Part shown: one piece after another, positions 1 through 22,722 of the stretch | Layout: each line of letters starts with the position of its first letter | How positions within the stretch are numbered: position 1 is the first letter of the stretch | Assembly (NCBI RefSeq): GCF_000972705.2 | Contig: NZ_LATL02000284.1 | Location: 1-22,722, forward strand | DNA length: 22,722 nt | Direction of reading: 5' to 3' | Source of the DNA: Limnoraphis robusta CS-951 | GTDB lineage: Bacteria > Cyanobacteriota > Cyanobacteriia > Cyanobacteriales > Microcoleaceae | The notes under the pieces: model-generated | The model's database searches: none | Told to the model about the DNA's origin: nothing | Seen by the model: the letters and a program-made list of their open reading frames with translations, nothing else | Program-made: the position numbers and the translations under genes

Positions 1-122
1 TTACAGAGACAGAACCTTCAAACCTTGAACCGGAAATAACTCCTGAACCAACAGAAGTTCAACCAGAAGGAATGCCCAGTGGGTTCGAGCAACCGTTAGA
101 AGTTGAAACTCCTGCTGAGTAG
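1..122 (+). CDS. C-terminal fragment of a Pro/Glu-rich protein (5' truncated by window)
   Basis: An open frame enters from the left edge (codons starting at position 3) and ends at TAG 120-122. The roughly 39 visible residues are dominated by Glu, Pro and Thr (motifs such as EPEITPEPTEVQPE, ending VETPAE). This is a low-complexity acidic tail of the sort found at the end of membrane-anchored or multidomain cyanobacterial proteins. No domain is visible, so function cannot be assigned. The consistent reading frame and the Glu/Pro codon pattern are the only evidence for coding. Confidence 0.5.
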   Translation, partial: TETEPSNLEPEITPEPTEVQPEGMPSGFEQPLEVETPAE

Positions 123-185
123 TCAAAAGAATTGATGAATTATAGCAATGACCAGAGAGCTGTTTACCAAAAATTGCCGCACACG

Positions 186-563
186 CCCCTACCTTCAGGT
201 ATGGGGATATAAGGCTCTTTCTAATGCTATAATAACTCTACTGGCAGGGTATTCAACCAGTTGAAAAACCCAGCATCTAATCGATGCAATGAACCTTGAA
301 AACTTAAGGTACGGGGTTCTTGCTCTGAATGCTTTGGCCATATAAAACCTTAAAGCACCAAGTACAGAGAATCAAGCATTTTTTTCTCAAGTACGGTAGG
401 GCATACCGAAACTATCTCTGAAATGAGATGAACGACTGGGGAGACTCACCCCAAAGAGCGTTGATTGGGAAACCAGTTGGCTTTAAGGGTTGTCAATGAA
501 TCAGTAATCCAAAGCCGTGAGGCTTGGAGAATCCCCTTTCTTTAGAAATGGGGAGTATGTCAA
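186..563 (+). mobile_element. ORF-less IS200/IS605-type element (PATE/MITE-like)
   Basis: The two ends carry hairpins of identical architecture. The left one (186-206) is CCCC-TACC, loop TTCA, GGTA, bulged T, GGGG. The right one (533-553) is CCCC-TTTC, loop TTTA, GAAA, bulged T, GGGG. Short imperfect palindromes with one unpaired T are the signature recognised by Y1 TnpA transposases of the IS200/IS605 family. The right hairpin is followed by AGTATGTCAA (554-563), and the tnpB element at 11937-13373 ends its right hairpin with the comparable tail AGGATGTCAA. No transposase ORF lies between the ends; the interior is structured RNA. The element is therefore probably non-autonomous and mobilised in trans. 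The exact left boundary (somewhere in about 150-186) cannot be fixed by eye. Confidence 0.65.
211..530 (+). ncRNA. Candidate HEARO / IscB-type omega-RNA without its nuclease gene
   Basis: About 320 nt form a dense series of stem-loops. They are ACTGG/CCAGT (240-244/257-261), GCATC/GATGC (273-277/283-287), CCTT/AAGG (294-297/306-309), CGGTA/TACCG (394-398/404-408), ATCTC/GAGAT (414-418/425-429) and TGGGG/CCCCA (437-441/449-453). There are also two GNRA-capped stems: TGG-GAAA-CCA (466-475), and CCAAAGCC-GTGA-GGCTTGG (509-527, one bulged A). A nested pairing between roughly 318-336 and 351-377 is also possible. Size, position inside an IS605-type element and general look resemble HEARO RNAs, the omega-RNAs that guide IscB. 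That family assignment is from memory of the class, not an alignment. In IscB systems the guide is 5' of the scaffold, so bases just upstream of the element would be the guide. No iscB ORF follows. Confidence 0.55.
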
Positions 564-570
564 AACTTCT

Positions 571-600
571 TCTTTGTGTTTTTTGTGTCTTGGTGGTTAA
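571..600 (+). repeat. Dispersed GTGTCTT-type repeat, copy A
   Basis: This is a T/G-rich stretch built on TTTGTGT and TTGTGTCTTGGTGG units. Related copies lie at 11806-11833 (inverted) and 15100-15126. It starts eight bases after the GTCAA right end of the ORF-less IS element. Such 'gtgtcttcgtgtctttgtgg' repeats are widespread in cyanobacterial intergenic DNA. No coding potential is evident. Confidence 0.5.
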
Positions 601-650
601 ATAAGGCTTGATCCTTGTAAAGAGACCAACGCTCGATCAATAAATTTCAA

Positions 651-686
651 CCCTATCTTAAAATAGGGCGCAAACCGAGTGCGCCC
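651..686 (-). terminator. Overlapping stem-loops downstream of the DUF4330 gene
   Basis: Two hairpins share the GGG at 666-668 and so are mutually exclusive. The first is CCCTAT (651-656) with ATAGGG (663-668). The second is GGGCGCA (666-672) with TGCGCCC (680-686). On the minus strand they lie 12-48 bases past the stop codon of the 699-1220 gene and are followed by an A/T-rich tract, which fits a terminator. The GGGCGCA..TGCGCCCC motif also recurs as a dispersed cyanobacterial repeat, so the terminator role is inferred. Confidence 0.45.
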
Positions 687-698
687 CTACACAGCGTT

Positions 699-1220
699 TT
701 AACTTTTTACCCGCACATCAATCACGGTGGCATTGAAGTTATAGTTTTTACCTTCGAGTTCAACCGTTGTGCCGATTTTAATTTTAATATTCCCCAAAAC
801 AGGCCCGCTATCTGTGATTTGACCGTTTCCGACTAACGTCATTAAGATATTATGGCTGTAGGTGTACTCAGCAGTCGGGTCAGGTCGAGCTTTTGAAGTG
901 CCATCGGGTTGAGCAACCGGGATGAGTCGGGGTAAAACTTCAAGGCTTTTAATATTTACCTGTCCGTAGGGTTGATTACGGATAATCAAATTTGTCTTTT
1001 CGTTGGCTTTGATCATTGCGTTGGGGTCACGTCCCTTTAAACCTAGAGCAATTACATCAACTTCTACAGGTTTAGTGGTAACACCCACCTGAGCCACAGA
1101 ACCGGATGTTCCCGGATAGAAAAATATTCCCACAATCACTAACAAAATCACAAAAGCAGCACCGAAATCTAAAATGCTGACTTTTCCAAACAGGCGACCT
1201 TTAGAATCTAAAATATTCAT
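699..1220 (-). CDS. DUF4330 domain-containing membrane protein
   Basis: A 173-aa protein beginning MNILDSKGRLFGKVSILDFG, the characteristic opening of cyanobacterial DUF4330 proteins. One N-terminal membrane helix (about residues 18-36, FGAAFVILLVIVGIFF) is followed by a soluble domain. That domain carries the family motifs VGVTTKPVEVDV, IIRNQPYGQV, GPVLGNIKIKIGT and C-terminal YNFNATVIDVRV. It is probably anchored in a membrane with the domain outside the cytoplasm. The molecular role is unknown. The frame is open 12 codons further upstream (to 1256), but family conservation starts at MNILD. An AAGGAG on the minus strand lies about 14 bases before this ATG, somewhat distant but usable. It is divergent from the histidine kinase gene, with about 360 bases between them. 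Confidence 0.85.
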   Translation of the reverse strand: MNILDSKGRLFGKVSILDFGAAFVILLVIVGIFFYPGTSGSVAQVGVTTKPVEVDVIALGLKGRDPNAMIKANEKTNLIIRNQPYGQVNIKSLEVLPRLIPVAQPDGTSKARPDPTAEYTYSHNILMTLVGNGQITDSGPVLGNIKIKIGTTVELEGKNYNFNATVIDVRVKS

Positions 1221-11998: not shown

Positions 11999-13132
11999 AT
12001 GCTTGTGTATGAAATGAAGCTGCAAGGAACACAATACCAGTACAGAAAGTTAGACGAAGCTATCCGTACTGGTAGGTTTGTTCGCAACAGCATCATTAAA
12101 GCATGGATAGACGGTCAAATCAAAAGTCGTAACGATGCTTATACCTACTGCAAACTACTGTCAGACAACCCGAGTTTTCCCTGGGTAAACCAACTCAATT
12201 CTATGGCTCGACAAGCCCACGCAGAAAGAGCATGGGCATCCATTGAACGATTTTATCAAAATTGTCGGAAAAAAATACCAGGTCGAAAAGGCTTTCCCCA
12301 ATTTAAAAAGTACCAAGTCCGAGCATCAGTTGAGTACAAAACATCAGGCTGGAAACTTTCAGAAGATAGACGTTATTTAACGTTTACTGACAAGTTTCAA
12401 GCAGGTACATTTAAACTTTGGGGTAGCCGAGATTTACACTTCTATCAACTCCAACAAATTAAACGGGTTAGAGTGATTAGAAGACACGATGGGTATTATG
12501 CTCAATTTTTAATCGATCATACCAGAGAGGAAAACAAAGAACTCACAGGAAAACAAACTGGGCTAGATGTAGGTCTTAACCATTTCTACACCGATTCTTT
12601 TGGCAATCAAATAGACAATCCCCGCTTTTTCAGGAAAGACGAGCGACGTATTAAAAAGCTGCAACGTCGCTTATCTCGAACAAAAAAGGGAAGTCAAAAC
12701 CGCTCAAAAGCCAGAAATCGTTTAGGTAGAAAATATCTTAAGGTTTCACGCAGACGTAACGATTGGGTTTGTAAACAGGCTCAACACGTCATACAGTCTA
12801 ACGACTTGGTAGCGATTGAAAATCTACGGATACGGAACATGGTTAAAAACCATCATTTAGCCAAGTCAATTAACGATGCTGCGAGGGTTCGATTTAGAGA
12901 ATGGTTAGAATATTTTGGGAGAATTTATGGGGTTCCGGTGATCGCCGTTGAACCTGCATACACATCTCAAAACTGCTCAAATTGCGGTGAAAAGGTTGTC
13001 AAAACTCTCAGTACGAGAACTCATAAATGTCCTCACTGTGGGTATGTAGCAGACCGAGACGAAAATGCCGCCAAAAACATTCTAAAATCTGCACTCAAAC
13101 AGTTATCAAATCAAGAAACGGATAAGAAATAG
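11999..13132 (+). CDS. tnpB: RNA-guided endonuclease TnpB (IS200/IS605 family)
   Basis: A 377-aa, full-length protein opening MLVYEMKLQGTQYQYRKLDE, the standard TnpB start. Its role is omega-RNA-guided cleavage of the donor joint, which favours retention of the element (known for ISDra2 TnpB). The RuvC residues are intact: D190 in GLDVGL, E274 in AIENL, and the DRDENAAKNI motif (352-361). A zinc finger is formed by CSNC (326-329) and CPHC (344-347). The N-terminal REC/wedge region (about 1-180) and the basic helix (210-255, many Arg/Lys) are present. No frameshift is seen, so this copy appears active. No SD is visible before the ATG. The omega-RNA should run from the 3' end of the gene to 13373. 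Confidence 0.93.
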   Translation: MLVYEMKLQGTQYQYRKLDEAIRTGRFVRNSIIKAWIDGQIKSRNDAYTYCKLLSDNPSFPWVNQLNSMARQAHAERAWASIERFYQNCRKKIPGRKGFPQFKKYQVRASVEYKTSGWKLSEDRRYLTFTDKFQAGTFKLWGSRDLHFYQLQQIKRVRVIRRHDGYYAQFLIDHTREENKELTGKQTGLDVGLNHFYTDSFGNQIDNPRFFRKDERRIKKLQRRLSRTKKGSQNRSKARNRLGRKYLKVSRRRNDWVCKQAQHVIQSNDLVAIENLRIRNMVKNHHLAKSINDAARVRFREWLEYFGRIYGVPVIAVEPAYTSQNCSNCGEKVVKTLSTRTHKCPHCGYVADRDENAAKNILKSALKQLSNQETDKK

Positions 13133-13200: not shown

Positions 13201-13373
13201 CCGCTTAATATCTGTTTTGAAAATACCGTCGGGCAGATGGAAATTAACGCCTCCCGAGAGACTGACCTCTGCTTGGACGGGGAAACCCAATCCTTGTAAG
13301 TCAACTCATAGAAAGAGGAAGCCCAAATAGTGATGTTTGGAATCTCCGTTGTTTACGACGGAGAGGATGTCAA
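13201..13373 (+). ncRNA. TnpB omega-RNA (reRNA) scaffold
   Basis: In TnpB systems the guide RNA scaffold is encoded at the 3' end of tnpB through the right end, and the guide is the flanking DNA just beyond it. Here 13201-13373 has paired elements that fit. GGAC..GGGGAAACCC..TCC folds near 13275-13304, CCAAA/TTTGG at 13323-13327/13336-13340, and the right-end hairpin at 13344-13363. The guide would begin at 13374. The 5' end is not defined from sequence. Confidence 0.65.
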
Positions 13374-21748: not shown

Positions 21749-22722
21749 GTGAAGCAAGTTGTGACCGCCAAGTTCAAATTAGACCTGTCTCCAGAGCAAA
21801 AAGAAGCTGTGAGACAGGTCACTTTGGCTTATCGGGATGCACTGAGCTACGCTTCTCGGGTAGCCTACGCCAACAACAAACTGAGTAATGGAACGAAACT
21901 CCAGAAACTCGTCTATTACGACATCAGGGATTTATTTAAGCTTCCTGCCCAGATGTCGTGTAACGTCCCTCGCCAAGTCGGTGCAACCTACAAAACGCAG
22001 TGGACAAAATTCAAACAAAACCAGCAAGCGATTAAAGACGGGAAGACGAAGAAACTGTTTAAGGGGTTAGAGCACCCTTGCAAGTTTTCTTCCCGAACCT
22101 GCACCCTCAATTACCAACGAGATTATTCCTGGAAAAAAGATAATCAGGTGAGTTTAGTTACCCTGTCAGGTCGCATTGTTGTTAAATATTCTGGCTACAA
22201 CAAGCACATTGACTGGATTAAACAGGGAGCAAAAATTGGTTCCGCCAAAATCTACTATACTGCTTCATCGAGAACCTATTACTTGTTAGTCAGCTTAGAA
22301 ATAGACTTGCCCGATATCGACCCCTACACCATTAAACAGGTGCAAGGTATCGATGTCGGGCAACGTTTTTTAGCTGTGTCCGCCAAAACAGACAACAGCA
22401 GTCAGTTCTTTTCTGGTAAAGCGATTAGACATAAAGCTAATCGCTATCACAAAACCAGGAAATCCTTGCAGAGGAAAGGCACTCGGTCAGCCAAGCGCAG
22501 ATTAGTTGCGTTATCTGGCAGAGAGAGACGGTTTACCTCTGACGTGAACCACCAAATCAGTAAACAGATTACTCAACCTCACAGCTTAATTGGATTAGAG
22601 GATCTTTTGCACATTAGAGAACGAACTCGTTCTAAATATGGGAAAAAAGCGAGTAAGAAGCAGCGCAAGGCTAATCGCAATAAAGCGAAGTGGTCTTTTG
22701 CTGAACTTCATTCCTTCATTGA
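21749..22722 (+). CDS. TnpB-like RNA-guided nuclease, second lineage (3' truncated by window)
   Basis: An uninterrupted frame of 324 codons runs from a GTG at 21749 off the right edge; the first in-frame ATG is not until 21953. The protein opens VKQVVTAKFKLDLSPEQKEA. RuvC-I Asp is seen in QGIDVGQRFLAV and RuvC-II Glu in LIGLEDLLHI. Between them lies an Arg/Lys-rich helix (HKANRYHKTRKSLQRKGTRS). RuvC-III and the zinc finger lie beyond the window. It differs strongly from the TnpB at 11999-13132 in its N-terminal region and RuvC-I context, so it belongs to another IS200/IS605 subgroup. No stop or frameshift is visible. A TTGACA (21693-21698) lies upstream, with only a poor -10. Confidence 0.85.
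   Translation, partial: MKQVVTAKFKLDLSPEQKEAVRQVTLAYRDALSYASRVAYANNKLSNGTKLQKLVYYDIRDLFKLPAQMSCNVPRQVGATYKTQWTKFKQNQQAIKDGKTKKLFKGLEHPCKFSSRTCTLNYQRDYSWKKDNQVSLVTLSGRIVVKYSGYNKHIDWIKQGAKIGSAKIYYTASSRTYYLLVSLEIDLPDIDPYTIKQVQGIDVGQRFLAVSAKTDNSSQFFSGKAIRHKANRYHKTRKSLQRKGTRSAKRRLVALSGRERRFTSDVNHQISKQITQPHSLIGLEDLLHIRERTRSKYGKKASKKQRKANRNKAKWSFAELHSFI

What the first reader, a model, noticed from the sequence alone, without database searches (positions are those of the whole stretch)
186..563. Stand-alone structured RNA in an ORF-less IS605-like element (HEARO-like)
Seen: matched end hairpins with identical 4+4 bp, bulged-T architecture flank at least eight stem-loops, two of them GNRA-capped, and no ORF. 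Known: IscB omega-RNAs (HEARO) sit in IS200/IS605 elements, and in some cyanobacteria copies lacking the nuclease gene occur. Inference: this is a guide-RNA-only element that could be served in trans by an IscB or TnpB elsewhere in the genome, either as a mobilised passenger or as a domesticated guide.
Basis: partly seen in the sequence, partly recalled or inferred. Interest (0 to 1): 0.75.

Follow-up and report, generated by a model that had tools for sequence, protein, structure and literature searches.

The report
Gene-less transposon carrying guide-RNA scaffold
A 396-base jumping element in a cyanobacterium carries no protein gene, only a likely promoter and a large, conserved RNA whose 3' half is related to the guide-RNA scaffold of TnpB nucleases; it is not the IscB-type RNA first suspected, and its 5' half matched no RNA family in Rfam.

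Summary
Window 168-563 is an ORF-less IS200/IS605-type element: TTAC|...|TCAA ends, twin 4+4-bp hairpins with a bulged T. A copy in Lyngbya aestuarii is 97%/90% identical; another relative has exact empty sites without target duplication. The RNA is real: 54 of 79 pairs in 25 relatives show two-sided changes.

It is not HEARO: RF02033 finds 9 of 10 control IscB loci but nothing here even at E<=10.

The 3' half (385-510) is a TnpB-type reRNA: its model hits tnpB 3' ends, including the window's own TnpB at 13217-13323. The 5' half (238-373) is a conserved domain not found in 30 TnpB and 9 IscB loci, with an extended -10 box before it. It occurs in 160 of 388 genomes drawn from the relative's order. 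TnpB is in 29 of 29 carrier genomes tested, and in one genome without a match.

Best reading: a non-autonomous element that is a self-promoted guide-RNA gene, moved by TnpA and served by TnpB in trans, with the guide downstream of 563. Expression and TnpB binding are untested.

The parts
164..167 (+). TTAC target / TAM-like site left of the element
   Evidence: TTTAC precedes the L. aestuarii copy; TTAC precedes 14 of 19 relatives scanned; two exact empty sites end in TTTAC
168..563 (+). whole ORF-less IS200/IS605-type element (396 bp)
   Evidence: 97%/90% identical copy with exactly these ends in another site; 433-bp relative with exact empty sites and no target duplication
186..206 (+). left-end hairpin, 4+4 bp with bulged T
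   Evidence: sequence, fold
225..233 (+). extended -10 promoter box TGCTATAAT
   Evidence: 31 of 49 distinct upstream regions have their best -10-like hexamer at -13 to -10 from the 5' domain; 19 of 49 reach a score met by under 10% of shuffles
238..373 (+). 5' RNA domain, no Rfam family, model R1
   Evidence: 120.4 bits with R1, of which the window is one building sequence; 160 of 388 genomes
240..271 (+). H-type pseudoknot: ACTGG 240-244/CCAGT 257-261 and GGGT 247-250/ACCC 268-271
   Evidence: second stem of the expected kind printed for 22 of 35 RNAs; as helix 1 97% of cells pair, 2 of 4 pairs with two-sided change; the first stem was only checked by the script
385..510 (+). 3' RNA domain = TnpB-type reRNA scaffold, model R2
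   Evidence: R2 hits tnpB 3' ends at 51.9-74.5 bits
389..414 (+). 26 nt identical to the 3' end of a Microcystis-phage tnpB gene
   Evidence: 100% identity in 5 phage records; inside the CDS annotated as transposase in MaMV-DH01
509..527 (+). GNRA (GTGA)-capped stem before the right-end hairpin
   Evidence: sequence; a similar hairpin follows the window's own TnpB reRNA, by eye
533..553 (+). right-end hairpin, 4+4 bp with bulged T
   Evidence: sequence; similar to an H. pylori phage IS605 right end and to the window's TnpB right end (score 45 vs shuffled max 29)
560..563 (+). TCAA right cleavage site
   Evidence: TGTCAA in 18 of 19 relatives scanned; L026 differs
564..583 (+). predicted guide (flanking DNA read through by the RNA)
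   Evidence: inference from TnpB anatomy (PMC10278001, passages)
11999..13132 (+). TnpB (377 aa), possible trans partner; Asp, Glu, Asp present in the motifs recalled as the RuvC active site
   Evidence: Pfam OrfB_IS605 and Cas12f1-like_TNB; motif positions
13217..13323 (+). reRNA of that TnpB, homologous to the 3' domain
   Evidence: R2 51.9 bits, E 5e-10; pairwise score 76 vs max 42 in 200 shuffles

Best explanation
It is a non-autonomous IS200/IS605-type transposon whose whole cargo is a dedicated noncoding-RNA gene. A promoter inside the element drives a ~326-nt RNA. That RNA consists of a conserved 5' domain (pseudoknot plus long helices) fused to the reRNA scaffold of a TnpB nuclease, and it reads on into the flanking DNA, which becomes the guide. 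A Y1 transposase (TnpA) encoded elsewhere moves the element by recognising the end hairpins and TTAC/TCAA. A TnpB encoded elsewhere binds the 3' scaffold and cuts the emptied donor site (TTAC next to the guide sequence), favouring retention and spread.

Shown: element ends, mobility in a relative, RNA structure, reRNA homology, wide distribution, presence of TnpA and TnpB genes in carrier genomes. Inferred: transcription, processing, which TnpA and TnpB act, binding and cleavage, and the role of the 5' domain (perhaps stabilising or processing the RNA where no tnpB mRNA exists).
For: Exact empty sites of a relative in two genomes, no target duplication. 97%/90% identical copy in different flanks in L. 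aestuarii. 54 of 79 pairs covary. R2 hits the MaMV TnpB 3' end (74.5 bits), the window's own TnpB (51.9) and 5 of 30 other TnpB loci, and 0 of 9 IscB loci. Two of the TnpB loci with an R2 hit (L094, L109) also have the TTAC site and the AAATTGGGTTTAAAGCC-type left end. R2 lies next to R1 in 20 of 22 further R1 loci. No TnpB in the flank held (up to 1.5 kb a side) in 50 of 51 and 25 of 25 locus records. TnpB in 13 of 13 and 16 of 16 carrier genomes; Y1 transposase in 18 of 19. -10 box before the 5' domain.
Against: No expression data. TnpB presence does not discriminate: G061, without a match, also has 116 TnpB matches. Only 5 of 30 sampled TnpB loci carry a scaffold close enough for R2, so the partner is not pinned down. 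The left end of the window's own TnpB element does not resemble this element's left end beyond chance (score 12, shuffled mean 9.3, max 30). The element RNA has an extra hairpin (helix 8) that the two TnpB reRNAs aligned lack. One carrier (G037) has no Y1 transposase match. Single-domain copies exist: R1 without R2 in L128 and L135, R2 without R1 in L114. No function of the 5' domain was tested.
Confidence: 0.68

Rival explanations
1. HEARO: an IscB omega-RNA without its iscB gene, guide at the 5' end, served by an IscB elsewhere.
For: ORF-less element with IS605-like ends and large RNA; IscB is common in several carrier genomes (12 of 13 have a PF14239 match, 11 over cut-off).
Against: RF02033 absent at E<=10 but 96-156 bits in 9 of 10 IscB loci; R1 and R2 hit 0 of 9 IscB loci; the 3' half matches TnpB reRNA instead; L. 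aestuarii has only a sub-cut-off piece and G004 no match to IscB although both carry the element.
Confidence: 0.03
2. Plain PATE/MITE: a core-deletion derivative of a TnpB element whose structure serves only as single-stranded DNA for TnpA; the RNA has no function.
For: Ends, lack of ORF and 26 nt identical to a phage tnpB 3' end fit decay from a tnpB element; some PATEs are described as such core deletions (PMC3119063, passages).
Against: Internal covariation far from the ends; G.U bias to one strand 184:38; conserved 5' domain not found in tested TnpB loci, so not simply what remained; recurring -10 position; a copy shared by two genomes is more conserved than 4-fold sites of a neighbouring gene (287/299 vs 123/152, Fisher p 4e-7).
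Confidence: 0.17
3. Domesticated guide RNA: fixed copies act with TnpB, or a nuclease-dead TnpB, as RNA-guided regulators, and the mobile copies are their relatives.
For: L065/L076: no left end recognised by eye upstream, RNA kept; RNA 287/299 and the next 32 nt 32/32 identical while 4-fold sites are 131/162 and 123/152. TldR precedent (PMC13418256, passages).
Against: Only two genomes of that genus could be examined; the next 32 nt lie just before a start codon and may be conserved for that reason; a pattern search with TTTAC plus guide found no convincing second target. The window copy itself keeps both ends.
Confidence: 0.12

Closest known systems
TnpB reRNA / omega-RNA of IS200/IS605 elements
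   Same: 3' domain homologous in sequence and fold to tnpB 3' ends; right end closes the scaffold; guide expected downstream
   Different: no tnpB ORF; a likely promoter of its own; an added 5' domain of about 140 nt and one extra hairpin
PATEs (palindrome-associated transposable elements, PMC3119063, passages seen)
   Same: near-terminal palindromes, no inverted repeats, no target duplication, too short for a transposase
   Different: some are described there as fused ends after core deletion; here the core is a conserved RNA found in many genomes
HEARO / IscB omega-RNA (RF02033)
   Same: large RNA in an IS605-type element, sometimes ORF-less (recalled)
   Different: no covariance hit, different scaffold, guide expected on the other side
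RAGATH-18 (RF03064), reRNA of IS607 TnpB (PMC11061315, passages seen)
   Same: weak full-length match in the 3' domain of one of five relatives searched, L061, 22.2 bits, E 3.2
   Different: half of the gathering score (44.9); may be chance; IS607 context with tnpB upstream

Membership tests
HEARO / IscB omega-RNA | match to RF02033 | tested here: not met
   none at E<=10; positive control 9 of 10 IscB loci
HEARO / IscB omega-RNA | iscB gene directly downstream | tested here: not met
   no ORF of 80 aa or more between 1 and 698; the next gene is DUF4330
TnpB reRNA | scaffold homologous to tnpB 3' ends | tested here: met
   R2 hits in L001, window 13217-13323 and 5 of 30 TnpB loci
TnpB reRNA | overlaps or adjoins a tnpB gene | tested here: not met
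   window: none within 11 kb; no TnpB near in 50 of 51 and 25 of 25 locus records
TnpB reRNA | binds TnpB and guides cleavage | not testable with these tools
   needs bench work
IS200/IS605 element (non-autonomous) | subterminal hairpins, no inverted repeats | tested here: met
IS200/IS605 element (non-autonomous) | site-specific insertion without target duplication | tested here: met
   exact empty sites of a relative in G040 and G043 after TTTAC; not tested for the window copy
IS200/IS605 element (non-autonomous) | moved by Y1 TnpA | tested here: inconclusive
   PF01797 in 18 of 19 carrier genomes; which TnpA acts is unknown
PATE | near-terminal palindromes, no duplication, too short for a transposase | tested here: met
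   duplication tested on a relative; definition from PMC3119063 passages
Group I or II intron | match to intron models | tested here: not met
   no such match in window 1-750 at E<=10 or in five relatives at E<=5

The most novel reading that the evidence does not exclude
A transposon that is nothing but a guide-RNA gene: a selfish RNA that exploits TnpA and TnpB made by other elements, driven by its own promoter. Its 5' domain is a new RNA family that replaces the role of the tnpB mRNA (stabilising, processing or preferentially recruiting TnpB). Fixed copies have lost their ends and been kept as stand-alone guides.
Probability: 0.4. Interest if true: 0.85.

Novelty: new variant of a known kind. 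Interest (0 to 1): 0.7.

Why it matters
TnpB guide RNAs are mostly known as products of tnpB transcripts (recalled; PMC10278001, abstract start and passages). Here a guide scaffold is uncoupled from its nuclease gene, has a likely promoter of its own, is fused to a conserved 5' domain with no Rfam match, and is spread over many cyanobacterial genomes and at least one cyanophage group. If TnpB serves it in trans, it is a natural case of guide RNAs parasitising or networking RNA-guided nucleases, comparable to the step to separate guide and effector genes in CRISPR. The 5' domain is a new RNA part that can be tested, and Nodularia phage and Dolichospermum give named examples.

Tried and rejected
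HEARO: rejected by Rfam with a positive control. Group I/II intron or another Rfam family: no match to the element. IscB in trans for this element: unlikely. Exact-pattern scans of viral contigs found nothing. BLAST of the window element against plasmids found nothing at E<=1e-5. A motif search of 12 IscB-family loci for the CCTTGAAAACT core found nothing. A second target for the conserved guide of L065/L076 was not found: apart from the two own sites, one 3-mismatch site whose left part is TTTAA. The left end of the window's own TnpB does not align with this element's left end beyond chance.

Literature searches for ORF-less or MITE-like TnpB guide RNAs listed no paper whose title or shown abstract start describes this element. 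Three of these listings showed only 15 of 162, 275 and 715 papers, and the library holds only open-licence papers, so this is not proof of absence. The TnpB retention paper I had in mind (PMC11758364) is not held.

Results against my reading: 2 of 22 R1 loci lack R2 (L128, L135); L114 has R2 without R1; L030 (R1 34.9 bits) lacks the 3' half by eye; 1 of 51 locus records has a TnpB nearby, on the other strand (L016).

Full report
What is there. Window 168-563 is a 396-bp element with TTAC on its left and TCAA as its last bases. Hairpins at 186-206 and 533-553 have the same 4+4-bp, bulged-T form. No ORF of 80 aa is present; the longest stop-free run is 58 codons. No genome is held for the window. 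The nearest relative found is Lyngbya aestuarii BL J, with 89% identity in the neighbouring DUF4330 protein. That genome holds a matching element in two pieces, 97% identical over element positions 1-242 and 90% over 243-396. The pieces lie within about 320 bases of the ends of two contigs and stop at the same element position, where a group II intron begins and ends (GTGCG start; RF00029 at 45.2 bits directly before the right piece). I infer one element split by an intron; that the two contigs adjoin is not proved. Both ends also resemble those of an IS605-type element in an H. pylori phage (element 18-48 at 87% and 361-396 at 89%).

It is mobile. A 433-bp relative in G042 (L037) is missing, to the base, from the same place in G040 and G043: both keep the left flank ending in TTTAC directly followed by the right flank. 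No target duplication is seen. This is how IS200/IS605 elements insert (recalled).

The RNA is real. Relatives were found by BLAST in 24 of 61 genomes of the family of G001 at E<=0.001, some of them through short tnpB-like pieces only. Of 35 RNAs extracted, 25 were aligned; I left out eight with large insertions (L016, L019, L025, L036-L039, L063) and two close to L021 (L023, L024). Of 79 pairs, 54 have changes on both sides; 92.5% of cells pair against at most 46.1% for slid controls. A 5' pseudoknot (for example CTGG/CCAG with GGGT/ACCC) varies compensatorily; the script printed the expected second stem for 22 of 35, other pairings for the rest and none for L078, and that stem pairs in 97% of cells. 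G.U cells exceed A.C cells 184 to 38.

It is not HEARO. The window gives no RF02033 match at E<=10. The same library finds HEARO in 9 of 10 IscB loci from related genomes.

The 3' half is a TnpB reRNA. Model R2 (window 385-510 and 23 relatives) hits the 3' end of a cyanophage TnpB (74.5 bits), the window's own TnpB element at 13217-13323 (51.9 bits) and 5 of 30 TnpB loci; it hits 0 of 9 IscB loci and not the H. pylori phage locus. Two of those five TnpB loci (L094, L109) have the same left-end sequence type and TTAC site; a motif scan also touched L102 at its edge, and did not find the motif in L001 or at the window's own TnpB. The homologous stretch includes 26 nt identical to the coding end of the phage tnpB, so the scaffold probably descends from a tnpB 3' end.

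The 5' half matches no family in Rfam. Model R1 (window 238-373 and 17 relatives) hits 160 of 388 genomes drawn from the order of G001 at E<=1e-5, and 47 of 386 in a draw from the whole phylum that overlaps it; only 8 candidates per genome were scored, so copy numbers are lower bounds. It hits none of 30 TnpB loci, two phage transposon loci or 9 IscB loci. R2 lies next to R1 in 20 of 22 further loci and was found in 15 of 15 earlier ones searched. Named carriers are Nodularia phage vB_NspS-kac65v151 (R1 67 bits, R2 88 bits) and the Dolichospermum flos-aquae plasmid pAfl69 (R1 40 bits, R2 78 bits). The downstream part was matched in five Nodularia phage records, one of them the RefSeq copy of kac65v151.

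It looks like a gene of its own. The best -10-like hexamer lies 10-13 bases before the 5' domain in 31 of 49 distinct upstream regions; 19 of 49 reach a score met by under 10% of their shuffles, so individual calls are weak although the position recurs. In the window it is TGCTATAAT at 225-233. Some relatives carry a divergent small ribbon-helix-helix-like ORF between left end and promoter (RHH_1 over cut-off for the one in L060, only sub-cut-off matches for those in L069 and L127).

Partners. TnpB (PF07282) is present in 14 of 14 genomes, 13 of them carriers of the element (G061 is not shown to be one), and in 16 of 16 carriers; since G061 also has it, presence alone does not discriminate. 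Y1 transposase is present in 18 of 19 carriers. TnpB is nevertheless rarely next to the element: 1 hit in 51 locus records, 40 distinct places since 11 were fetched twice, and none in 25 more; these searches used three TnpB queries and up to 1.5 kb of flank. The window's own TnpB has Asp, Glu and Asp in the motifs I recall as its active site.

How it probably works. TnpB uses a scaffold that ends at the right end, followed by a guide encoded outside the transposon, and processes the 5' end of its RNA (PMC10278001, abstract start and passages). By that rule this RNA would guide TnpB to TTAC plus the bases after 563, that is, to the donor site after excision. Transcription, binding and cutting are inferred. 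The role of the 5' domain is open; I favour stabilising or presenting the scaffold where there is no tnpB mRNA.

Fixed copies. In G107 and G081 one RNA sits between the same two genes. No left end was recognised by eye in the upstream sequence. The RNA is 287/299 identical and the next 32 nt 32/32, while 4-fold sites of the flanking genes are 131/162 and 123/152. This suggests selection on the RNA, but rests on two genomes, the only two of the genus examined.

Verdict. By the definition in PMC3119063 (passages) it is a PATE-type element, but one whose core is a conserved RNA, which I rate as a new variant of a known kind.

Noticed in passing
L009 252 / L010 321 (equivalent to window 409/410): In L. 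aestuarii the element appears interrupted inside the reRNA domain by a group II intron; the right piece is preceded by RF00029 and, by eye, by the end of an HNH-type maturase frame.
   Followed up: partly
L069, L075, L081, L060, L127: A small divergent ribbon-helix-helix-like ORF lies just upstream of the RNA promoter in some copies; it may regulate the RNA.
   Followed up: partly
L113 (Nodularia phage kac65v151) 1799-2106: A cyanophage genome carries the whole RNA between an intein-containing ribonucleotide reductase gene and gp175; a hypothetical gene gp174 is annotated over its 3' part on the other strand.
   Followed up: partly
L065 / L076: Copy shared by two genomes between a cystathionine gamma-synthase-like gene and a protein kinase gene, without a recognisable left end, more conserved than 4-fold sites of its neighbours.
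   Followed up: partly
window 21749-22720: A second, divergent TnpB-like ORF (PF01385) runs off the window end.
   Followed up: no
L034, L113, L115, L134, L138, L140, L141, L143: By eye, a second subtype of the RNA with a longer insert in the 5' domain and without the extra hairpin (consensus helix 8), closer to TnpB reRNAs in that respect.
   Followed up: no
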